Source: Neocallimastix lanati (nom. inval.) (taxonomy: Eukaryota > Neocallimastigomycota > Neocallimastigomycetes > Neocallimastigales > Neocallimastigaceae). Taken from it: a stretch of DNA of 64,000 nucleotides. The stretch covers positions 777,501-841,500 of the forward strand of contig JACVTC010000018.1 in assembly GCA_016946835.1 (NCBI GenBank), given 5' to 3'. Below the pieces are notes generated by a model that did not search any database, was not told the origin of the DNA, and worked only from the letters and a program-made list of their open reading frames with translations. Position numbers and translations under genes: made by a program. Of this stretch, positions 10,590 to 64,000 are shown in pieces (position 1 is the first letter of the stretch; each line of letters begins with the position of its first letter).

Positions 10590-10790
10590 TATTCAAATTT
10601 TTAATTTACTAAAGATCTTATAATATAATATAATTTGAAAAGTAGAAATCTTTTTTTATATTATGTAAGAATTAAGAATAGTATATATATTTAATTTTGT
10701 ACATTTTATAGTATTTATATTCAACATATAGTCAACATAATATGTGGCCTATTACTATTATTAGTCACACATATCTTATACTAATATATT
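10590..10790 (-). repeat. Diverged LTR-like repeat, family E
   Basis: Shares the succession 'gtaga..tctttttttat', 'tttatagtatttat' and 'aatatgtggcctattactatta' with 39730-39845, and in inverted orientation with the LTR-like sequence at 20365-20728. Boundaries are uncertain. Probably an old solo LTR; the 10071-10589 flank shows nothing else. Confidence 0.4.
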
Positions 10791-10896
10791 ATTGTAAGAT
10801 ATATATATATTTTTTTTTTTTTTTTTATTTTTTTAGACAGGGAAGAGAATACACTTCCAAAACTTTATTAAATTTTATTTTAAAAAATACATGTAG

Positions 10897-11259
10897 GTGA
10901 AAAGTACATTTGAAATTAAAAATAAAAAAATAAAAAATAAAAAAATAAAAAAGCTCGAAAATACTATGTATTTCGGCAAGTTGTACTATGCGGGAATTTT
11001 TCCCTTCCTATCAAATAAAAAAGAAATAAAACCTAGAAGTAACATCTTTAAAATAGATAGTGTGGTGTCCACTAAACTCTCCCAGGACTCATCATTTATT
11101 GAACTACTAGGGAGAGATTCATCCTTCGTAGCAATAGATGACGATCCTGTATTATCATTATGCCTTATCAGTACGACGTCGAAGCTCTTGGATAAGTTTG
11201 ATATTTTGCAATACCTATCAAATAATAGAAGATATATATATATAACATTACTCCTTTAA
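10897..11259 (+). other. Unrecognised repeated open frame (120 aa)
   Basis: An open frame of 120 residues, clearly less AT-rich than its surroundings over 10950-11220. It starts with a Lys/Ile/Asn run and then has a Ser/Asp-rich stretch (SSFIELLGRDSSFVAIDDD). I recognise no family. A decayed second copy exists at about 31280-31440, where 'atctttaaa..aga.tgagtggt.tct.ttaaa.tctc' and 'gagaatt' line up. Being repeated, and lying near LTR-like sequence, it is more likely part of an unknown transposable element than a host gene. The ATG is weakly supported; only the part after about residue 20 looks coding. Confidence 0.4.
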
Positions 11260-11299
11260 TTAATATAATTATAAATATTTATATTTTTGTTTCTAACAT

Positions 11300-20728: not shown

Positions 20729-21563
20729 GAATATATTAATATATAGGCAACTAATTTAAAATAATTAAGTACTAGTGATTAATTATCAAAAAAAATATTA
20801 ATGAAGTTGTCTTTATTATAAACCCAAAATTGTTTATTAAGAGTCTTATATAATTATAATTAATACTAATAAAAACTTCTTACATTATTTATATTTTTGA
20901 CCAATTTAGCTACCAGCCGAATATGATCAAGCAAAATATTTTTTTTTTTCGAGATCTATATATGAAATATAGAAATTCTTAAAATAAAAATTTAAAATTT
21001 AAGTTTATAAGTGAAATATTTTCTTACTTTATTGAACAAATATTAAAATGTTCTAAAGATTAGAAATAATGAAACCGTTTAATGTTTAATAAATTAAGAA
21101 ATGATTTTTTTCTGACAAACGAAATTTAAATAATTTTTATTATTCCATTTGATAAAAATATATTTATTTAAAATTTTTTAAATAAATTTAAATTACAGTA
21201 ACATTTTAAAATTTTGAAAATTTAAATTTTAAAACAGGTAATATAATTAATACAATTGAAAATAGAAAGAAATTTAAAAATGATTTCTAAAGTTATAAAT
21301 GGATAAACATATTCTAACTAATGAAATTTTGAAATATAAGTAATTTAAATTTAACAAAATAAACAATGAAATTTTAATATATTTAGGATTCACATTTAAA
21401 TTTTGAAAGAATAAAATATTTTTCAATTAAGAAAATAAACAAAGTTAATTAACCTAAGAATTTTAATTTCAATATTTTATATAAATTTGTTTTTTAAAAT
21501 TCAAATATATTATTTTTTATACAAATAATTTTTTATTGAAAATTATAAAATATAAAATTAAAG

Positions 21564-22652
21564 ATGAATATGAATTATAAATTTTCAGTTATTATTATAC
21601 TATTTTTTTTTATATTTTTTATTAAATTATACTTTGCTTTTACTGTAAAAGAATCAAAAATTCATAGATTATTACTTCGTAAGAAAAAATGTCAAACCAA
21701 AAATATGAAATCAAAAAGACTTTATAAAAAATGTCATTCTTTAGGAATGTTTAATAAAAATGAAATTTCTGAGAAAAAAAAATCATTAGTAATGTTATCT
21801 AGTTCTTCAAAATTTGATTACAATAAAATAGAAAATTTGATTGTTTTTGGAGATTCTCATTCATCAGTTGATACAAATTTTACAGATATGTCTTATACTG
21901 GAAATAATCATTCTGGTGGTAAAAATTGGCCTTTATATCTGTTAGAATTTAACAATAATATGAAATTATTGAATTTTGCATCAAGAGGAGCGGTTGTTGA
22001 TTCAAATATTGCCTTTCATAGGAAAAATACCATTGATTTTTTAAAACAGTATAAATTATTTTATGAAAAAACAATTTTTGAAAAGAAATCTCTTAATGAA
22101 TGGAATAGTTATAATACACTATTCGCAATTTATATAGGAACAAACGATATTTATCATATAAATCATAAATGTAAAGATGAATATTCTATTTTTTGCACTA
22201 AAAATAATAAACAGGTAATTGATAATATAAACGATATTATCGATATCATTTTTAATATAATTTATAAATTATACAATACCGGAGCAAGAAATATAATGAT
22301 ATTTACCATATCTCCAAAGAGCTATATTTTAAATAATTATTTAAAAAATGATGTTATAAGATTTAACGATAATATAATTGAAAAATCAAAGTACTTTTTT
22401 AAGAAGCATTCTGACATTAATTTTATTATTTATAATATCACTGATAAACTTAAAGAAATTATTTCTAATTGCACTATGTATAAATTTAAAGATTGTACAA
22501 ATATGTGGAAATTTAATAAGGAAAATAATTTATCAGATTATTTATGGTTTGATAGCCATCTAACTGATCATGGAAATAAAATATTAGCATATGATATAAA
22601 TTATTTACTTTATTCCTTAAGTACTTATTATAATGCTAAAAAGATAAATTAG
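21564..22652 (+). CDS. Secreted SGNH/GDSL-hydrolase-like protein, copy 2 (motifs intact)
   Basis: A 362-residue protein paralogous to 889-1947. Signal peptide at about residues 4-26, a Lys/Cys segment with C-x-x-x-x-x-K and KKCHSL, then the hydrolase domain: FGDSHS near residue 96 (nucleophile Ser), the conserved G of block II near SGGKNWP, GTND near 192 (oxyanion Asn) and FDSHLTDHGN near 330 (acid and His). The last motif is spaced D-x-H rather than the textbook D-x-x-H, so the exact acid is uncertain. Family activity: ester hydrolysis or acyl transfer on secreted polysaccharides. Two- to ten-residue insertions relative to copy 1 lie in the middle third. It is the probable functional member of the pair. 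Confidence 0.85.
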   Translation: MNMNYKFSVIIILFFFIFFIKLYFAFTVKESKIHRLLLRKKKCQTKNMKSKRLYKKCHSLGMFNKNEISEKKKSLVMLSSSSKFDYNKIENLIVFGDSHSSVDTNFTDMSYTGNNHSGGKNWPLYLLEFNNNMKLLNFASRGAVVDSNIAFHRKNTIDFLKQYKLFYEKTIFEKKSLNEWNSYNTLFAIYIGTNDIYHINHKCKDEYSIFCTKNNKQVIDNINDIIDIIFNIIYKLYNTGARNIMIFTISPKSYILNNYLKNDVIRFNDNIIEKSKYFFKKHSDINFIIYNITDKLKEIISNCTMYKFKDCTNMWKFNKENNLSDYLWFDSHLTDHGNKILAYDINYLLYSLSTYYNAKKIN

Positions 22653-28077: not shown

Positions 28078-29328
28078 ATTTTGGAATGAAAGTTATATAA
28101 AATTATAATACTAAAAAAAAAAATAAATTATAAAAAATTTAATTAATTAATATAAAATATTTAAATTCTTTACATATTTTATTTTCAGTAAATAGTCATT
28201 CTTTTTATATGAAAAATATTATTTTTAATAATTATACTTTATTTTATTTTAAATAGGTCACAAAAAATATATGATTTTCTGTTAATTTTAAAATTTATAA
28301 TAGATATTTTAAATTTTTTTATTTAATTAAGAAGTTATTTTTTAGTTTATAATTTTTAATAACAGGTAATAAAATTCATCCAAAATATAATAATTAAATG
28401 AAATATTAAATATTTTCGGAGTTTTTAATATTAAACAATATTTTAAAATAACAAAAATAAATATTGCATAAAATTATTCTAATATAACTAATACTAAATT
28501 ACATGTATTAGCATTTTTAATATTTTTAAATTCAAATTAAGAATATTTAATAAACATTAATTTAAAATGTTAATATTTATTTTCAAATATATAATTATAA
28601 TTTTTTTTATTAAATATTAATAATTTTTAAATTATATTTTTATTTTATATAAAATAAAGGTAAAATATCATTTAAAAATAATAAAAATGACATTGTATTA
28701 TTTCATTAAATAATTTATATATGTAAATTATTATATTATATATCTATGTCAAAATTTTTTTTATTGAATAAATAAAAACGAATTTGAAATAATTAAAAAT
28801 TTTATTATGTTTATATATATTATGCTACTATATCCAATTAACTAAAATTAATATAAAATTTATTTTATCTTTGTTTATTTTAATAATACAATATTAAAAT
28901 TATAAAAGTTTTTCTTTATTAAAGTATTATTAATTATGATAAAATATAATATATAATATAAAAGATTAAAGTTTAAAAAAATAATTTAATTTATATTTTA
29001 ATTTTTGTTAAAAAAAGAAAACAATAATATATTAATAAATCTTTTGTTTCGTTAAAACAAATTACTTACATTTATTATATTCATTTTTTAAAATAGTCAA
29101 TTTAAAAAGTTTATAATAGAATTGATATTCATAAATAAGCAAAATTTAACAAAAATATATTAATTAAATAATTTTTTTTTAAAATAAAACATTAAAGTTT
29201 ATTTGTTTTTATTAAAAATAATTTTAATATTTTTATTAATTAAAATTATAATTAAAAATTAAAAATTAAAAATATCTAATAAAAAATTGTTAAATATAAA
29301 CTTTTTCTTAATAAACGATAAATTAAAA
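28078..29328. other. Divergent intergenic region between UDP-glucose dehydrogenase copy 2 and the family-2 glycosyltransferase
   Basis: AT-rich; 28078-29000 is shared with copy 1, and 29000-29328 is unique and should hold the glycosyltransferase promoter. The two genes are transcribed away from each other. No motif can be singled out. Confidence 0.5.
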
Positions 29329-30090
29329 ATGAATTTAATTTTTGAAGTATTTTTAATTATATTTTTATATTTAGAAATATTTGTAAAGAACATTTATGCA
29401 CTACCGTTATCCATTGTTGTGCCTGTATTTAATACAGCATCATACTTGGATCGGTGTATAAGTTCAATATTGAATCAAAAATTCAAAGATTTTGAATTAA
29501 TATGTGTTGACGATGGATCAACAGATAATTCAATGGAAATATTAGAAAAATATAAAATGACTGATAACAGAGTTAAAATTATTCATTTTGAAGAAAATAA
29601 AGGAGCCAGCGCTGCAAGAAACACAGGAATTGAAAATGCAAAAGGAGAATTTATTGGATTTGTTGATAGTGATGACTATATTGATGAAAGATTTTATGAA
29701 AATCTGATTCAAAAATCAAATGATTATGATATTGTTGTTGGTCAACTTGTATTAAGTACTAATATTTCTAAATATTATTATCAAGAAAAATATGAAAAAC
29801 ATTGGTCAATTTATGATTCAATATGGAGAAAAAAGTTCTTAAACGAAAATAATATCAGATATGATGAAACGTTGAAAATTGGAAATGACTTTGCTTTTAA
29901 TGTATTAGCATATAAATATAATCCAAAAATTTTAAACTTACCTGATGAAGGAATATATTATTATTATAAGAGAAGAACAGGTTCCCTTAGAAATTTTTCA
30001 AAAAGTGATTTAAAAAAATTTAATAAAAATGCTTATAGAAGTTTTAAGAATAATAAAAAGGACCTAAAGAAGAAAAAAGAATACTTTTAA
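29329..30090 (+). CDS. Family-2 glycosyltransferase with N-terminal secretion signal, bacterial capsule type
   Basis: A 253-residue protein from the ATG at 29329; the frame is open further upstream but without an ATG. Residues 1-24 form a signal peptide or signal anchor. The GT-A fold begins at LPLSIVVPVFN (25-35), with CVDDGSTDNS (DD at 61-62), GASAARNTGI (92-101) and the metal-binding FVDSDDYID (DSDD at 113-116). IWRKKFL and the acidic GNDFAFN segment fit family-2 enzymes of bacterial capsule and exopolysaccharide clusters. A Lys-rich tail ends it; at 253 residues it is shorter than many bacterial relatives. Bacterial homologues are cytosolic, so a secretion signal implies relocation to the ER or Golgi lumen (inference). 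Donor and acceptor sugars cannot be told from the sequence. Confidence 0.85.
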   Translation: MNLIFEVFLIIFLYLEIFVKNIYALPLSIVVPVFNTASYLDRCISSILNQKFKDFELICVDDGSTDNSMEILEKYKMTDNRVKIIHFEENKGASAARNTGIENAKGEFIGFVDSDDYIDERFYENLIQKSNDYDIVVGQLVLSTNISKYYYQEKYEKHWSIYDSIWRKKFLNENNIRYDETLKIGNDFAFNVLAYKYNPKILNLPDEGIYYYYKRRTGSLRNFSKSDLKKFNKNAYRSFKNNKKDLKKKKEYF

Positions 30091-37899: not shown

Positions 37900-38950
37900 A
37901 TGTTTTTTAAAAATATGAGAAATAAAAATATTTTGATTTTTATTTTGATTATTATTAAATTAATATGTTCTTCTGAAAGTAAAATTTCCAAATGTGAAAA
38001 ACTAATTAAAAAATATCATTCACAAAAAACTAATAGTACTATTGAATATTTTAATTATAATGAATATACTTATAAATTAACATGCAATGAAACATGTAAA
38101 AATCATATATTTAAAGTTTGTAAGAAAGATTTAATAAAATGGTATAAATTAAAAATGAAAATTAATGATTTTGATATAGAAAATCCAAAGACATTTAATG
38201 AAAAAATACAATGGATGAAATTATATGATAATAGTCCTTTGAAAACACAATTAACAGATAAATACTTAGTAAGAGATTGGATAAAAGAAAAAATTGGTGA
38301 AAAATATTTAATACCATTACTAGGGGTTTGGGATTCATTTGATGAAATAAATTTTAATTTATTGCCTAATCAATTTGTCAAAAAGCAAATCATGGTTGTC
38401 AGTTTAATATTATTGTTACAAATAAATCAAAATTAAATATTGAAAAAGCTAAAAAAAAATGAATAAATGGCTAAAAATTAATTTCGCATTTAAATACGGA
38501 TTTGAATTTCAGTATTTGAATATTAAACCAAAAATAATAGCAGAAAAATATATTGAAAATATTAATGGAGATGTTTATGATTACAAAGTTTTTTGTTTTA
38601 ATGGTAAAGCAGAAAGTATACTTGTTATTAATGATAGAAAAACAAAGTTAAAAATGTCTTTTTATGATTTAAATTGGAATAAATTAGATTATATTTATTC
38701 ATTTTCTTTAAATAAAGAAATTGTACCTAAACCAAAAAATTTAAATTTATTAATTGAATTAGCTGAAAAATTAGCTGAAGGTTTTTCTCATGTTAGAGTA
38801 GATTTTTACATTCTTAATGATGGCACTATTAAATTTGGTGAAATGACTTTTAGTTCAGCAAGTGGAATATGTAAGTGGAATCCAATTCAACAAGATAAAA
38901 TATTCGGAGATTTAATTGAACTACCACCCAAAAAAAATTTTTTTTTATAA
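37900..38950 (+). pseudogene. TupA-like ATP-grasp protein with signal peptide, frame disrupted
   Basis: Two frames, 37900-38436 and 38459-38950, together cover a TupA-like ATP-grasp protein (bacterial teichuronopeptide or capsule biosynthesis family). N-terminus: signal peptide (MRNKNILIFILIIIKLICSS), Cys-rich stalk, then the family hallmark NPKTFNEKIQWMKLYDNSPL and LTDKYLVRDWI. The C-terminal half has DYKVFCFNGKAE, HVRVDFYIL and FGEMTFSSASG (metal and ATP-binding end). Relative to the related copy at 41430-41975 and to the family NHG motif, one base is missing at an A-run near 38385 and one at the A-run near 38455. Both sites being A homopolymers, a consensus error in the assembly is an alternative to a real pseudogene. 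Confidence 0.75.
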
Positions 38951-39580
38951 ATTAATTTTACTATTAAATTATAATTTATTAATATTTTTTAAAATGAACA
39001 TTTTTTATTTATTTTCAACAGTATAAACATGTTTTTTAATAATATTGACATAAAAATTTAATAATAATATATTTTATTTGAAATTTTTTATATATTAAAA
39101 ATTACAATAGTTATAATAAATATATTTATAAAAAAAATAAATATTTATTAAAAATTTTAACTATATTTTTTATTTAAAAAAAATAATGGTGTGTCACATA
39201 AATTCATAAATTTTTTATTAAATGTAATTAAAAAAATTAAAATAAAAATTATAATAAAAAATTAGAAAAAATAATAATAAAATTAAAAAAAATAACAAAA
39301 TATTTAGATGAGCAATAAATCCTATTTTAAAAATAAAATACATAAAAATAAAAATTTTTTTATTATGTATGCTTCATGTTTAATATAAAAAAATAAAAAA
39401 AATTTATTAACAATTATTTTTTTGTAGATTACTATTTGATAAAATTATGTTATAAATTAAAAATATAAATCTATATTTTAAGTTTAATTTTTTAAAAAAT
39501 GAAGTAATATACAAAGTTAAATTTTCATTTAAAAATTATTTAATTGTTTAGATTTTAATTATTAATTTTGTGTTTTCCTT
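38951..39580. other. AT-rich intergenic sequence downstream of TupA-like gene
   Basis: The first 100 bases resemble 41976-42080, the 3' flank of the second TupA-like sequence, showing that the duplication included the 3' flank. Nothing else seen. Confidence 0.5.
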
Positions 39581-39843
39581 AACTGAAGAGTAGAGAATAT
39601 TAATCTTTAAAAACTAAAATTTCAATATAATATTGTAGAAATTATTAAATAGTAATTTATTTAAAATAAGAGTCAAAAATAGAAAATATTAAAAAATATC
39701 TTATTATGTTTTAATAATAAAATTGTTAAAAGTAGGAAACTCTTTTTTATTATTATATTAGAATAAAAAATAGTCTATAAGCATAATTTTATACTTTTTT
39801 ATGGTATTTATAGTAAATGTAATATGTGGCTTATTATTACTAT
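39581..39843 (-). repeat. Degenerate primer-site plus LTR-like remnant, family E
   Basis: 39581-39605 (aactgaagagtagagaatattaatc) is a decayed version of the tRNA-Lys primer-site sequence of Copia A, oriented for an element on the minus strand. The following 39606-39843 shares motifs with the repeats at 10590-10790 and 20365-20728. Confidence 0.4.
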
Positions 39844-40035
39844 TTGTTAAACGACAATATTAATGTGTCGAACATACTATCTACTAATCATATTTTACAT
39901 ACAAACAAAATAAGATAAGAATATTACAAATAGTTCATAAAAATGTAGTTAATCTTGTTTTTATATAATAAATAAAAATGCTATATTAATATTATATACT
40001 TTATAAGTGTACTTCTATAATTTTAGTGTTTAAAA

Positions 40036-40063
40036 GATTAAGAGTTTCATCTAACCTCAACTC
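40036..40063 (+). promoter_or_regulatory. Primer-binding site of Copia D (tRNA-Lys(CUU) 5' half)
   Basis: Begins gattaagagtttcatctaac; complementary to the anticodon-loop end of tRNA-Lys(CUU) with one change from Copia A, B and C. Confidence 0.6.
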
Positions 40064-40144
40064 ATATAAAGCTAAGTATTAAAATATATATAGTATAAAA
40101 AATAAATAATAAAATATATTCTTACTAATTAATATCTTAAAATA

Positions 40145-40146
40145 CC

Positions 40147-40174
<28 letters not shown>
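40145..40174. repeat. Poly-A tract in Copia D leader
   Basis: About 30 A residues; a second run at about 40710-40738 is followed by (AT)n. Confidence 0.9.
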
Positions 40175-40177
<3 letters not shown>

Positions 40178-40302
40178 AATTTTTTTAATCAAATTCAACA
40201 TTATACATATATATTTAAAAGATGAAAAACAATTCATTTTTTTTAATTTATATACAAAAAAAAAAACAAAAAAAAGGGCTTACATAGATAAGAAATAAAT
40301 AA

Positions 40303-40442
40303 TGCTATGCTGAAATAGTCAGCTGCAAATAAGAGGTAAATAATGCTATGCTGAAATAGTCAGCAGCAAATAAAAGGTAAATAATGCTATGCTGAAATAG
40401 TCAGCAGCTAATAAAAACGTCACACTGAAAATAGTCAGTGAC
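40303..40442 (+). repeat. Leader hairpin array of Copia D (four units)
   Basis: Three 41-bp units carry gctatgctgaaatagtcagc (hairpin GCTG/CAGC around aaatagt). A fourth, gtcacactgaaaatagtcagtgac, has a near-perfect GTCAC.CTG/CAGTGAC stem. All share the loop-like sequence gaaa(a)tagtc. Confidence 0.8.
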
Positions 40443-40706
40443 AAAACAAAATCTTATTAAAATTTCAATTAAATAATAAGATTTAAAAGGAAATATAATT
40501 CGCGTTATGAACAAATGAATAAACAAATAATTTATCGAATAGAATTTAAAATAAAAATATATATTAAATTAATAATAAATTAAAGGTGAATTTAATTATT
40601 CCTATATAGATATATAAAACAATGAAGAATATTAATATCAAAATTTAAACCAATAATTTAAATACATTAAAATTACCATAATTATTACTTAACCAATTAA
40701 ATTTAA

Positions 40707-40755
<49 letters not shown>

Positions 40756-40958
40756 TATAAGTATTAATCATCCAACAAATCAAATAATAGTATTTCAACC
40801 AATTAAATTAAATAATATAATAAAATAAAACAAACAAACATTCAATATTCAATCACATCATATGCTAACATAAAGTTCTTAAAGACTTAGTAAACGAACA
40901 AAAAAAATTTTTTTATCAAGAAAACATTTATCCAAAAATTCAAAAGGGAGATAACAAT

Positions 40959-41975
40959 ATGAGTAGAAACAGAAACAACATACCTATAACTATTGATGAC
41001 ACAGATGAAACCTTAACAAAAGGTATCACGTTCAATTACTCGGAAAATTTCAATCGTGTTATTGAACTATCTACAGAAAATTACCCCAGCTGGAGAACGA
41101 ACATTCTATATCTACTGATGATTAACAACCTTGAAGGATACGTAATGGAAGAAAAGATAAAGAAACTTAGAAAAAGAAATCTCAGGGATGACCTTGACAA
41201 CTACCTTGAAGACAAGTTTGACCCCAGCCTAGTATACGATAAGAACACATCGTTAAAAGACATAAAAAACGATGTAATGGTAAAATGGATCATTACCAAC
41301 AGCCTAGGAGAGAATACAAAGAAAATAATTGAAGGTAATGGAAAGACAGCTCATCAAATATGGATTACATTAGAAAAGTCCTTCACAATGAGTCCAGAGA
41401 AAAGGAAACTTGAAATTAAAAGCAAAATAAATATAATTGTTAAAAATAAAAAAAATTTAAATATTGAAGAAGCCAAAAAAAAAATTAATAAATGGATGAA
41501 AATTAATTTTGCTTTTAATTATGGATTTGAATTTCAGTATTTGAATATTAAACCAAAAATAATAGCAAAGGAATATATGGAAAACATTGATGGATATTTG
41601 TATGATTATAAAGTATTTTGTTTTAATGGTAAAGCAGAAAGTATAAATGTTTTTAATGATAGAAACACAAAACTAAAAATATCCTTTTATGACTTAAAAT
41701 GGAATAAATTAAATTACTATTATACGTTTCCTTTAAACAAAGAAATAGTACCTAAACCAAAAAATTTAAATTTATTAATTGAATTAGCTGAAAAATTAGC
41801 AGAAGGCTTCGCACATGTTAGAGTAGATTTTTATATACTTAATGATGGCACTATTAAATTTGGTGAAATGACTTTTAGTTCAATGAGTGGAATATCTATA
41901 TGGAAACCTATTCAAAAGGATAAAATATTTGGAGATTTAATTAAATTACCACCAAAAAAGCCATTTGTATTATAA
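40959..41975 (+). CDS. Chimeric frame: Copia gag N-terminus fused to TupA-like ATP-grasp C-terminal half
   Basis: One uninterrupted 338-residue frame. Residues 1 to about 155 are Copia gag (GITFNYSENFNRVIEL, YLLMINNLEGYV, KTAHQIWITLEKSF). From about residue 158 (NIIVKNKKNLNIEEAKKKIN) to the end it is the C-terminal half of a TupA-like protein, close to 38459-38950 (shared EFQYLNIKPKIIA, DYKVFCFNGKAES, KFGEMTFSS). It keeps the ATP-grasp metal-site end (RVDFY, GEMTFSS.SG) but lacks the signal peptide, the Cys stalk and the NPKTFNEK half. The junction lies near 41425. An LTR and leader stand in front, so LTR-driven transcription is conceivable. Without the N-terminal half the ATP-grasp part is unlikely to be a working enzyme. 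It is either a fossil of recombination or a young chimeric gene. Confidence 0.75.
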   Translation: MSRNRNNIPITIDDTDETLTKGITFNYSENFNRVIELSTENYPSWRTNILYLLMINNLEGYVMEEKIKKLRKRNLRDDLDNYLEDKFDPSLVYDKNTSLKDIKNDVMVKWIITNSLGENTKKIIEGNGKTAHQIWITLEKSFTMSPEKRKLEIKSKINIIVKNKKNLNIEEAKKKINKWMKINFAFNYGFEFQYLNIKPKIIAKEYMENIDGYLYDYKVFCFNGKAESINVFNDRNTKLKISFYDLKWNKLNYYYTFPLNKEIVPKPKNLNLLIELAEKLAEGFAHVRVDFYILNDGTIKFGEMTFSSMSGISIWKPIQKDKIFGDLIKLPPKKPFVL

Positions 41976-42929
41976 ATTATTATAATATTATTTATTAATT
42001 TATAATAAATTAATATTTTTTAAAATTAATATATTTTTTATTTAATTTTTCCTGCTTAAATATACTTTTTTATAATGATGAAATGAGTAAATTAATTTAA
42101 ATAAATTTCATATTAATTAATTTAGATATTAAAAATAACAACAAATACAATAAATGTAAATAATATATTTATTTATAATAAAAAAAAAATAATTATTTTT
42201 AATAATTTTTTTATAAATTTATTTCTTATTTATAATTAAATAATTAATAAAAATTATATTCAATGGAACATACATTTTTATTATTAAATACATAATTTTA
42301 TTGTAATAATATATATGAGACTTATAAAATTTTTAAAACAATATTATTTGTATCATAAACTATATAAACTTAATATTAAATTAATATATTCTATTTATTT
42401 GTAAAATATTAATTTTTTATTTTACCATTATTATTTCTAATTTCTTATAATTTCTTGTTATAATTTTTTTTAATTTTAGTTAATTCTGTTTTATAAATAA
42501 ATTTAAGAATTTATAAATAACACTAATATAAAAATATTAAATCATATATTTTTATTAATAATTCAAACTTTTTTAAAAAATAAAATTTTAGTAAAAAGGA
42601 AATATTTATTTAAGATTTTTTATCCAATTAAGAAACTCATTGATTCTTTATTGTTTTTTAGATATATTTATATTTGAAAAATAAATTGAGAAATTTAGTA
42701 ATTAGTTATTAGTACTATTGTCGATTGATTAATAATCAATAAAATAAATATGTAAAATTTAAGAAGTAAACCGAGTTGATAAATAGTAATTGATTGAATA
42801 AGTTCTAATTTAGTGAATTGTTCTATAAATAAATTAAAAAATTACTTAACGGATTTAAAATAATAATTTATTCAATGTAATAAGCTTTATATTAATTAGA
42901 ATGTTTAAATTTAATTTTAATTTTAATAA
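41976..42929. other. AT-rich intergenic sequence
   Basis: Starts with the 3' flank shared with the TupA-like gene at 38951; otherwise nothing recognised. Confidence 0.5.
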
Positions 42930-43281
42930 CCCCAATGATGTGGACTGTTTTTCCAGGTCCATAGAGGGTTGATGGAAAAGGAATAGCCTTTATCAGGTGT
43001 ACTAATTGCAGCCTTCTGTGAATTTGATGATAATCAATGGTTATCCTTTCTAAAGTAGCTTATTGTACGAAGAGAAAAAACTGGAATACTGGAAGACTGT
43101 AGAAAGTGAACTTGATGTTTTATATTGTTTTAAACTGGATATGTAGAAACATTGGAATTGTATAATTAATAATATCATGTAGTTTCTACATATTATCATT
43201 GTAATGAATCTATTGTATTTTTTACTTTGGCATTATTTTGTATATGTATTTTTCTATAGTATTATTTATACTTTCATGTAG
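42930..43281. other. Less AT-rich island of unknown nature
   Basis: Base composition is visibly less AT-biased than the flanks (for example ccaggtccatagagggttga). It contains a perfect 10-bp inverted repeat, atgtagaaac ... gtttctacat, with about 30 bases between the arms (43139-43190). It lies directly upstream of the LINE remnant and could be its 5' region. No protein or RNA family recognised. Confidence 0.35.
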
Positions 43282-43527
43282 CTATTGTAAAATGGAAATG
43301 TAGGAGATAGATTCACTCCAAAGCTTGTGTTTAAGACATTATTTAACGGATGGGAATCTTTTTATAGTCTTTCACTACTAAAATTATTTACATTTTCATT
43401 TCAGTTTATTTATGATTACATTAGAGGAATTTTTTTATTAATCAAAGCTTTACAAATCGAATAGAATTTCAGAAACTCAATTGTTAACAGAAAATACAAA
43501 ATTGAAAAAAAAAAAGATTATTCACAA

Positions 43528-58360: not shown

Positions 58361-58413
58361 AATAATATAAATTTAAAATATGACATTTTAGGAAAGTCAT
58401 ATTTTAGGAGGAA

Positions 58414-58652
58414 TGTTAGAATATAAAAAAATAAATACTTAATAATGACTTTAATATATTTTACCCAATCAGAATATTATTATATTTAAATAAAATTATA
58501 AAAGAAATAAAATGTAACCTTGTTAAAAATATATACACTTTTGTAATTATAAAAAAATAAAGATAAATAAAATTAAATATTAAGTATTATATATAAAATG
58601 TTATTCTAAAAATATATCTAATTTTCTCAATATTTGTTTTTGGTGTTTAATA
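58414..58652 (+). repeat. 3' LTR of Copia C
   Basis: 239 bp, identical to the 5' LTR by eye; followed by the target duplication aatta (58653-58657). Confidence 0.95.
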
Positions 58653-60817: not shown

Positions 60818-62917
60818 TTATATTCTTTTCTGTTTTTTAAGTAATTCCTTTTTTTTTATTGGTTTTTCTGTTTTCTTTTTATCTTTTTTTTGCTTCTTCA
60901 GTTTTTGTTTATCATTTTCAATATTGATCTTAACACTATATAATTCATCTAATTCATTATAATAATTATGCCAAATATTATTAATATATTTGTATTCAGG
61001 TTCATTTGAATTCCAAGGCTTTTTTATAATATAATGAATTATTTTTTCATTAGAAACATATCTAATATTTCCATAAAATACTCTTTTCATGGTATTATAT
61101 ATATTAGATTCTAAAGTTACCTTTATATTATTTTCTTGGAAATATACTTGCATAATATCTTGATCTGGACATCCATTATAATGTGGAAATGATTTATCAT
61201 ATTTATATGTTAAATTTAACATTCTATCAATATGTGTTTTATCTAACATATTTTTGTTTATAAATATTACACCATTATTTATGTTTGTATTTATTTCATC
61301 ATGTATATTATTCCATATTTCTTTATTTTTCACTTTATATTTTTCATGTGTAAAGCATATTATATTTTCATTATTATTAAATAATTCATAAATATTTGAG
61401 AGCACTAGAGTATCTGAATCAATATATAAAACTTTATCATAATCTGTTAAGCCAAAAATTTCAAATTTTATTAAAGGAGGTATAAATTTTTTGGGTATAA
61501 AATTCAAATTTATTTTACTATATTTTAAAGTATCTATTTTCAAAAATTTTACATTAGGAAATTTGTATAATATTCTTTTTTTAGATTCATTCGATAAAAT
61601 ACTGTATTTGTCATCATGTATTATTAGAATATCTCCATTAAACCAATTATTATGTTTATAAAATGAGAATAACATTGTTTCAAAACCTATTACATAATCA
61701 TCATTTAATATTGTACACAAACAATACTTATAATGTATTAATTTAAATTTTTCATCCAATTTCTTTTTTAAATCAGGAAATTCATTTATGATATTTTTTA
61801 AAATTAAATCATATTTTTTATCATTTACTTTATATAATGAAGTGACTTGTGAATCTTTAATGATATCTTTTGTATAATCGTAAATTTTTGATGATTGACG
61901 TAATGTTTTATTTTCAATAATATTAAAGCACCATTGCCAAGATTCATCTGATGTAGGAGATAATTTCATAAATAAATTTTCATTAAAAAATCTTTTATCT
62001 GTAAATGTATTTTTTGGATATAAAGTACCTCCAAATCCATTCATAGGTTTTCCTGTATTAACAATTATATTTTTTACCGCGTTTAATCTACCTGCTTTTG
62101 TTTTTATATATAAATATTTATATGATTCCCATTTTAATTCAGGTGTTAAATATTGCTTTGATGCACCAAAAATTATGTCATTAGGATATTTTAAATGATC
62201 TTCTAAAAACATTTTTATCCACCATGGTTTTCTAATGATATCATCATCACAAATTAATATTGGATTATTAGGATATTTATTTAATGTAGGTATCAACTTT
62301 TTATGGCTTATTATATTTTTTTCATACCATAAAATTTCAATTAAATCAGGATATTTATGTATAAAATTCATTAAATCAACAGGCAAATCATTTTCTTTAT
62401 TTGGAAATTCAGGAATAGCTAATACTAAAACAATATGATACACTGAAAATGGTATGAATTGATTTACCAATGATTCAAGTACGAGTTTTACAAATTTTAT
62501 TCTAGCAGGATATGATGTTAAAGAAATAATAAGTTTTTCTTGGTTTTTGTATGAATTTAAGGAATTTTTTTGTATATAATTATCTATTAATCCATTATTT
62601 GTTAATGTAACTATATTTTGTTTATTATAATATCCTTCAAGAGATAAAATACTTTTTTTATTTAAATTTTTATTGCAGTAGAATTTTTCCAAATTTTTTT
62701 TTTCATATTTTTTATTCAATTTATTGCATTTTAAACAATATTTAATAAATATTTTATTAAAATAATTATTTTTATTATTCTTTATTTTATATTTGTTATT
62801 TAGTTCTCCACATTTTAAACAATGCTTAATTAGAGCATTTTCAGATATACCAATAGTTCTTTTAACTAAAAAACAAATTATAAGAATTATTAAAAATAAT
62901 TTAAAAAAAATTTTCAT
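60818..62917 (-). CDS. Secretory two-domain glycosyltransferase: bacterial-type GT-A domain plus family-8 domain
   Basis: 699 residues. A signal peptide or anchor (residues 4-23) is followed by a stalk with two C-L-K-C motifs (about 34-60). Domain 1 (about 128-390) starts ISLTSYPARI and has the acidic metal motif ICDDDIIRKPWW near 223, resembling GT-A proteins of bacterial capsule loci. Domain 2 (about 397-645) is a family-8 (glycogenin/LgtC-like) transferase: YCLCTILNDDYVIG, VLYIDSDTLVLSN (DxD near 497), NNGVIFIN, DQDIMQVYFQ near 586, and IIHYIIKKPW near 629 as the nucleotide-sugar His/Lys motif. A Lys-rich tail ends it. Family-8 enzymes are retaining and use UDP-glucose or UDP-galactose-type donors; the actual sugars are unknown. 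Secretory localisation and domain pairing suggest a lumenal enzyme adding two successive residues (inference). Confidence 0.85.
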   Translation of the reverse strand: MKIFFKLFLIILIICFLVKRTIGISENALIKHCLKCGELNNKYKIKNNKNNYFNKIFIKYCLKCNKLNKKYEKKNLEKFYCNKNLNKKSILSLEGYYNKQNIVTLTNNGLIDNYIQKNSLNSYKNQEKLIISLTSYPARIKFVKLVLESLVNQFIPFSVYHIVLVLAIPEFPNKENDLPVDLMNFIHKYPDLIEILWYEKNIISHKKLIPTLNKYPNNPILICDDDIIRKPWWIKMFLEDHLKYPNDIIFGASKQYLTPELKWESYKYLYIKTKAGRLNAVKNIIVNTGKPMNGFGGTLYPKNTFTDKRFFNENLFMKLSPTSDESWQWCFNIIENKTLRQSSKIYDYTKDIIKDSQVTSLYKVNDKKYDLILKNIINEFPDLKKKLDEKFKLIHYKYCLCTILNDDYVIGFETMLFSFYKHNNWFNGDILIIHDDKYSILSNESKKRILYKFPNVKFLKIDTLKYSKINLNFIPKKFIPPLIKFEIFGLTDYDKVLYIDSDTLVLSNIYELFNNNENIICFTHEKYKVKNKEIWNNIHDEINTNINNGVIFINKNMLDKTHIDRMLNLTYKYDKSFPHYNGCPDQDIMQVYFQENNIKVTLESNIYNTMKRVFYGNIRYVSNEKIIHYIIKKPWNSNEPEYKYINNIWHNYYNELDELYSVKINIENDKQKLKKQKKDKKKTEKPIKKKELLKKQKRI

Positions 62918-64000
62918 TTGATTTTGAATTTTAATTTATATAATTGTAATTCAGGTTCAATTATCTATATATAAAATTTGTGAAGAAGGATCATTTGTAA
63001 TTTATATTTTTAGAATGAGATAAAGTTTAATATATTTAAATATTTAAAATCTTTAAGATTTATTTTGAATTGTTCTTTAAGAATTTGAATATTTTTTTTT
63101 ATCTGAATTTTAAATTGTATTATCTTCTCAAATTATTAAATTTGAGTTTTTTTGTTTATTTTTTTGAATTTTAAGATATGTCATTCACTTTTTAAAATAA
63201 AATTAAAATTCAAACTAAAATCGGTAGTTTAAATTATTATGAAAATAAACCTTTCAAAATTAAAAAAACACTTAATTTAATTTATTTTAAATTCTTTTTT
63301 TTAAATATAAAAATAAATTTAATTGTTTATTTACTTTTAATATAAAATATTTTTGAATCTTTAAATTAAATCATTAAAATTTTATTTTATTTTAGAATAT
63401 AAAATAAATATATATTAAAATAATATTTATCTCAGTAATAATTATTTATATAAAATATAAAAAAGAATTAAATACAATAATAAAATTTCTCTTTCTTAAA
63501 ATTTATTTCCTCAGGAATGATTAAAAACTGAAATGTTTATTACCTTGAATTTATAAGAATTTTTATATAAAAAAAAATATTTAATTCCATATCTTTGCAA
63601 ATATATAAATCAAGCTAATTTCAGTAAAATTTATTTATTAGTTTATTACTTATATAAATTAAGAACAAATTAATAAAGAGTTAATAATATAAATATGATT
63701 TCTTTTTAATTTTTTTAAAATACATAAGGGTTAAATATATTTTACACTTAACACTCATGTTAACTTAAAGCTTCGTAAATAAACAATTTTAAGCAAAAAT
63801 TTTATATTTATATATAAAAAAAATAAAAAAAATAAAAAAAAATTTAAAAATGATATAAAACTATAATAATTTTTTATTTAGGTAAACAGAATAATATAGA
63901 TATAAAATAATTAATTAATATTTCAAAGTTAAATCTATTAATTTTTTTTTAAATTGAATAATATCAAATTTTTAATATTTTTTAAGAATATTATACTTAT
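62918..64000. other. 5' flank of the two-domain glycosyltransferase
   Basis: AT-rich, no gene seen up to the window end; should contain the promoter of the minus-strand gene at its left end. Confidence 0.5.

What the first reader, a model, noticed from the sequence alone, without database searches (positions are those of the whole stretch)
40959..41975. In-frame gag/TupA chimera behind a Copia LTR and leader
A single 338-residue frame starts as Copia gag and continues as the C-terminal half of a TupA-like ATP-grasp protein closely related to 38459-38950. LTR, primer site and leader precede it, and the 3' flank matches that of the host gene. So a retroelement 5' end has replaced the promoter, signal peptide and first half of a host gene copy without losing frame. 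It could be a transcribed chimeric gene or an accident of recombination or template switching during reverse transcription.
Basis: partly seen in the sequence, partly recalled or inferred. Interest (0 to 1): 0.72.

Follow-up and report, generated by a model that had tools for sequence, protein, structure and literature searches.

The report
Accidental retroelement–host gene fusion by deletion
In what looks like an anaerobic gut fungus, the front end of a recently inserted Copia retrotransposon now runs, in frame, into the back half of a duplicated bacterial-type enzyme gene; one chance deletion after insertion explains it best, and nothing seen so far says that the fused gene does anything.

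Summary
Frame 40959-41975 (338 codons) is Copia gag for 157-158 codons, then the C-terminal part of a TupA-like ATP-grasp gene. The join is at 41430-41433 (not 41425), with a 4-bp overlap, AATA. An LTR (39845-40035), a tRNA-Lys(CUU) primer site and a leader precede it; about 270 bp of TupA-type 3' flank follow. The whole junction was found once in the 199-Mb assembly.

Nesting orders the events: a TupA gene (now in two frames) with its 3' flank; part of a second family's LTR in that flank; the Copia element inside that LTR; then the join. Missing to the right are the rest of the second LTR, about 3.9 kb of Copia with its 3' LTR, and the second TupA gene's first half; no orphan first half was found elsewhere. 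This fits one deletion better than template switching. Landing in frame has a one-in-three chance.

gag carries 1 private change in 472 bp, so the insertion is young, and dN/dS or the open frame say nothing about selection since. The fusion lost 17 of 18 conserved N-terminal TupA positions, about half of the Gag core match and the zinc knuckle. Expression is untested. Ordinary; low interest.

The parts
37900..38436 (+). TupA-1, N-terminal part, frame
   Evidence: PF14305 profile 1-62; 80% aa identity to L016 residues 1-162; one base shorter than L015 just before the frame is lost (by eye)
38459..38950 (+). TupA-1, C-terminal part, other frame
   Evidence: PF14305 profile 86-240; 88% aa identity to L016 residues 177-344
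38951..39711 (+). TupA-1 3' flank
   Evidence: 38963-39711 is 75% identical to the 3' flank of the intact gene in L016
39724..39844 (-). Part of the LTR of a second family (LTR-B); its continuation is not to the right of the join
   Evidence: 11 fetched dispersed copies match; the 10 that were printed go on past this point with other sequence; 40 matches scored include mostly this stretch
39845..40035 (+). 5' LTR of the Copia element (LTR-A), 191 bp
   Evidence: Matches both LTRs of L009-L012
40036..40049 (+). Primer site, 13 of 14 bases complementary to tRNA-Lys(CUU)
40050..40958 (+). Copia leader
   Evidence: Inside the Copia DNA match 39845-41433
40959..41433 (+). gag, first 157-158 codons
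   Evidence: 98.5-99.6% identical to 8 copies, one private synonymous site
41430..41433 (+). Junction: AATA shared by gag and TupA
   Evidence: an overlap of 4 or more occurs in 3.7-4.3% of random breakpoint pairs
41430..41975 (+). C-terminal part of a second TupA gene (TupA-2), in frame with gag
   Evidence: PF14305 E 2.7e-29; 88.2% DNA identity to L015 and to L016 over 164 codons
41976..42245 (+). TupA-2 3' flank
   Evidence: Similarity to L016, L017 and TupA-1 continues to about 42245

Best explanation
Two TupA-like genes lay one after the other. LTR sequence of one family came to lie in the 3' flank of the first gene, and a Copia element (5.4-5.5 kb in full copies) inserted into that LTR. 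A single deletion, joined at a 4-bp match, then removed the Copia element from about codon 158 of gag through its 3' LTR, the rest of the first LTR, and the promoter and first half of the second TupA gene. The join fell in frame by chance, leaving LTR, leader, gag(1-158), TupA(C-terminal part) and host 3' flank. Shown: the layers, the join, and what is absent. Inferred: that the two genes were in tandem and that one deletion did it. If made at all, from the LTR promoter, the product should be an inactive enzyme fragment on a truncated Gag.
For: Nested order of TupA-1 flank, LTR-B and LTR-A. No second LTR-A, and no continuation of LTR-B between the join and 58400. TupA part followed by genomic-type 3' flank. 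Five TupA places in the assembly and no orphan N-half. 4-bp overlap, 3.7-4.3% by chance. gag has 1 private site of 472 and LTR-A 3 of 191, against 27 of 537 in the TupA part: the TupA changes are mostly older than the insertion. Chance of staying free of new stops without selection 0.76-0.91. 17 of 18 positions conserved in bacterial relatives before the join are lost, and one of 16 after it is changed.
Against: Neither the intact tandem pair nor the undeleted element was seen; no related strain could be searched. The chimera's 3' flank stops resembling the other loci at 42245, while TupA-1 and L016 stay alike for about 760 bp past the stop, so a further event, or a TupA fragment rather than a whole second gene, is possible. 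A 4-bp overlap is only mildly unusual in such AT-rich DNA. Right of the join only about 22 kb were examined for the missing parts.
Confidence: 0.74

Rival explanations
1. Break repair joined the broken Copia element to a TupA fragment from elsewhere in the genome (translocation or copied fragment), not to a tandem neighbour.
For: TupA copies lie on three contigs; the flank homology of the fused part ends at 42245; the tandem state was not seen.
Against: The fused part is at most 88.2% identical to the other copies, so it is no recent copy of one of them; a neighbouring TupA-1 in the same orientation makes a tandem origin simpler.
Confidence: 0.12
2. Template switching: during reverse transcription the Copia cDNA was joined to a TupA transcript and the chimeric cDNA was integrated.
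For: A Copia 5' end with LTR and primer site is joined to host gene sequence in the same sense, as in transduction.
Against: No 3' LTR right of the TupA part in the window; similarity to genomic loci runs about 270 bp past the stop with no poly(A) at a shared end; the rest of LTR-B should then follow on the right and was not found up to 58400.
Confidence: 0.06
3. Assembly artefact: a misjoin inside a repeat made the fusion.
For: The Copia side is a repeat with 8 places identical over the last 84 bases.
Against: No orphan first half of TupA-2 was found in the assembly, and the join has a plain 4-bp overlap with unique sequence at its right. Reads could not be examined.
Confidence: 0.05
4. A working chimeric gene, kept by selection after the fusion.
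For: The frame is open, with an LTR in front and host 3' flank behind; dN/dS of the TupA part is 0.20-0.33.
Against: The same ratio is seen between intact copies (0.28-0.35) and the changes predate the insertion; catalytic half of the enzyme and Gag zinc knuckle are absent.
Confidence: 0.03

Closest known systems
Bs1 of maize, an LTR retroelement with transduced pieces of host genes (named in PMC7264820, passages seen; the original paper PMC2899935 is not held; its gag fusion is recalled)
   Same: LTR retroelement 5' end with host gene sequence in the same sense behind it
   Different: Bs1 is described as a transduction and exon shuffling by the retrotransposon; here no 3' LTR follows, genomic-type 3' flank is kept, and one place carries the join
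Truncation of LTR retrotransposons by illegitimate recombination at short homologies (recalled; papers seen only as a search listing)
   Same: Internal breakpoint, short shared bases, loss of one LTR
   Different: Here the other breakpoint lies inside a host gene and the frame happens to continue
TupA-like ATP-grasp proteins (PF14305); one such domain, of Cj1438 of Campylobacter jejuni, is reported to make amide bonds (PMC11800379, passages)
   Same: The C-terminal part of the fusion matches the profile to its end
   Different: The N-terminal part of the domain with the FVLK-NHG stretch is missing

Membership tests
Ty1/copia LTR retrotransposon (complete element) | Two LTRs with a target-site duplication | tested here: not met
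   Only one LTR-A in the window. L009-L012 have both.
Ty1/copia LTR retrotransposon (complete element) | LTR followed by primer site and gag | tested here: met
Ty1/copia LTR retrotransposon (complete element) | pol (integrase, reverse transcriptase) in the same frame | tested here: not met
   Copia homology ends at the join
TupA-like ATP-grasp (PF14305) | Score over Pfam's cut-off | tested here: met
   102.9 bits, cut-off 25; the match draws about 30 gag residues into the alignment
TupA-like ATP-grasp (PF14305) | Complete domain with the positions conserved among relatives | tested here: not met
   1 of 18 positions before the join and 15 of 16 after it kept; three intact fungal copies keep 34 of 34
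Retroelement transduction of a host gene (Bs1-like) | Host sequence enclosed between two LTRs | tested here: not met
   No LTR-A right of the TupA part in the window
Functional retroelement-host chimeric gene | Selection on the fused frame since the fusion | tested here: inconclusive
   1 private site in 472 bp of gag; too few changes
Functional retroelement-host chimeric gene | Transcript or protein across the join | not testable with these tools
   No RNA or protein data on hand

The most novel reading that the evidence does not exclude
The LTR drives a fused protein whose N-terminal part of Gag, nearly identical to that of young Copia copies, enters their Gag particles and hampers them: a newborn Gag-derived restriction factor with a host protein tail.
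Probability: 0.03. Interest if true: 0.6.

Novelty: new member of a known kind. Interest (0 to 1): 0.2.

Why it matters
It is a readable snapshot of how a mobile element plus one deletion can make a new in-frame reading frame at once, with nested layers that give the order of events. As evidence of gene birth it is weak: young, found once, and without the N-terminal half of the enzyme.

Tried and rejected
Private changes in the TupA part are 11 synonymous and 16 not; the other four copies have 5/7 (L015), 2/5 (L016), 7/17 (L017) and 4/1 (TupA-1), so no excess is plain. The private counts of gag (not shared with any of 8 copies) and of the TupA part (all other copies agree) are not defined alike.

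Base rate: one search lists 119 places, of which 4 are other TupA places, the chimera is one, and 114 are other gag places (a lower bound). I examined 49 of these 114: 9 relatives fetched first and 40 of those with frames below 800 aa. Eight of 49 lose Copia homology within about 1.2 kb of the gag start (L053, L057, L062, L064, L066, L067, L071, L076, with gaps up to 400 bp bridged). In L062, L064 and L076 the Copia DNA resumes after an insertion. None of the eight runs in frame into a recognised protein domain by the reading (their tails were not scanned with Pfam): L057 runs 110 residues, mostly asparagine repeats, L076 18, L066 1, the others none.

Structure predictions gave mean pLDDT 33.9 for the chimera and 39.1 for the intact TupA, useless; no fold search was made. 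No solved structure matched the intact TupA by sequence at E 1. ARAGORN on ten loci with the primer-site word gave no tRNA-Lys; a stricter word found it. Literature searches showed no report of this fusion in their listings; listings were capped at 6-15 papers.

Full report
Setting. The window lies in contig C90 (777501-841500) of a 199-Mb assembly of 762 contigs; its 2-kb bins have 11-29% G+C. The assembly gives 150 scored matches to PF02013 with 0 of 14 control genomes matching. From general knowledge of fungal dockerins I take it as an anaerobic gut fungus, perhaps Neocallimastix; a published N. lanati genome has a similar size (200.97 Mb, 970 contigs; PMC8561657, passages). No tool named the organism.

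The frame. 40959-41975 is open for 338 codons. DNA comparison gives a clean join: Copia copies match up to 41433, TupA loci match from 41430, with AATA shared. Just left of the overlap the window has A, as gag does, while the four other TupA copies have C or T (by eye), so the overlap is four bases. Eight places are identical to the window over the last 84 bases before the join. After the join the two other frames close after 0 and 2 codons; the one used stays open for 179.

The Copia side. LTR-A is 39845-40035, 191 bp. Four full copies (L009-L012) are 5432-5516 bp long and show 5-bp target-site repeats (TAATA, ATTAG, GATTC, GTAAC; by eye). Of the 14 bases after the LTR, 13 are complementary to a tRNA-Lys(CUU) from the anticodon loop backwards, so this family seems to use a half tRNA as primer (inference). 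The gag part is 98.5-99.6% identical to eight copies, with one private, synonymous site in 472 bp. LTR-A has 3 private sites in an alignment of 12 LTRs.

The layers on the left. 38963-39711, in the 3' flank of TupA-1, is 75% identical to the 3' flank of the intact gene in L016. 39724-39844 belongs to a second LTR family. All 11 dispersed copies fetched for it match, and the 10 that were printed go on past the point where the window changes to LTR-A. Its orientation (minus) is read from a primer-site-like word, again of tRNA-Lys type, that precedes it in L031, L034, L035 and L037; its coding region was not examined. So LTR-A is nested in LTR-B, and LTR-B lies in or at the end of the TupA-1 flank. 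The continuation of LTR-B was not found between the join and 58400; a 41-bp piece at 58401-58441 and several pieces left of the join, belonging to other copies, are the matches in the window.

The TupA side. The assembly gave five TupA places: three intact genes (L015, L016, L017), TupA-1 in two frames, and the chimera's C-terminal part (9 candidates scored). No orphan first half was found. TupA-1 is one base shorter than L015 at two places (by eye), so it is a pseudogene or suffers from homopolymer errors. Bacterial relatives reach 59% identity, many in gut metagenome genomes, so the gene looks bacterial in origin (inference).

What the fusion could do. In an alignment with 78 of 80 bacterial relatives, 34 positions are conserved in at least 95%; each of the three intact fungal copies keeps 34 of 34. 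The chimera keeps 1 of 18 before the join and 15 of 16 after it, with K at E210. In the Copia copy L010 the gag profile PF14223 covers residues 105-205 and the zinc knuckle 271-295; the chimera leaves gag after 157-158 residues and has no PF14223 match of its own. It therefore has neither a complete enzyme nor a complete Gag. I infer that it is inactive.

Selection and age. NG86 dN/dS of the chimera's TupA part against four relatives is 0.20-0.33; the three intact pairs give 0.28-0.35. The TupA part has 27 private changes in 537 columns (11 synonymous, 16 not), gag 1 in 472. So the ratio mostly reflects the time before the fusion. About 1 to 3 changes are expected in the TupA part since the insertion, and the chance of no new stop is 0.91 to 0.76 without selection (assuming a 2:1 bias to A/T).

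Origin. One deletion after insertion explains what is missing on both sides. A random join is in phase in one third of cases. Overlaps of four or more bases occur in 3.7-4.3% of random breakpoint pairs, mild support for end joining at short homology. Template switching would need a 3' LTR and would not be expected to bring genomic flank. A TupA fragment from elsewhere cannot be excluded, since the tandem state was not seen.

Rarity. Among 50 gag copies examined, the chimera included, this is the only one seen to run in frame into a recognised non-Copia domain; 65 of the 114 other gag places were not examined. One in-frame case among nine copies that are truncated or interrupted near gag is not surprising.

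Verdict. It is best read as a young accident, a new instance of a known kind of event, with expression untested.

Noticed in passing
40036-40049; L092; G000 contigs C188, C251, C266 and others: Two LTR families share a primer-site word complementary to the 5' half of tRNA-Lys(CUU), and 73 copies of that tRNA's core word lie in arrays, in C188 about 5.5 kb apart on alternating strands.
   Followed up: partly
37900-38950: TupA-1 is split between two frames by two one-base shortfalls against L015: a pseudogene or homopolymer errors.
   Followed up: partly
41568-41570: The chimera's TupA part has K where E210 is conserved in at least 95% of 78 bacterial relatives; the second TupA gene may have been decaying before the fusion, or the local EK/KE order shifts the alignment.
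   Followed up: partly
10611-10791 and 11240-11299: What looks like another interrupted LTR of the LTR-B type.
   Followed up: no
42930-43500: High-copy repeat: about 40 scored matches at 87-95% identity; nature unknown.
   Followed up: no
877-1947, 21549-22652, 29263-30090, 60818-62935: Two GDSL lipase-like genes, a family 2 and a family 8 glycosyltransferase among Copia elements.
   Followed up: no
L057 (C699:661296-664000): A gag frame that runs into about 100 residues of mostly asparagine repeat, where another repeat has come in.
   Followed up: no
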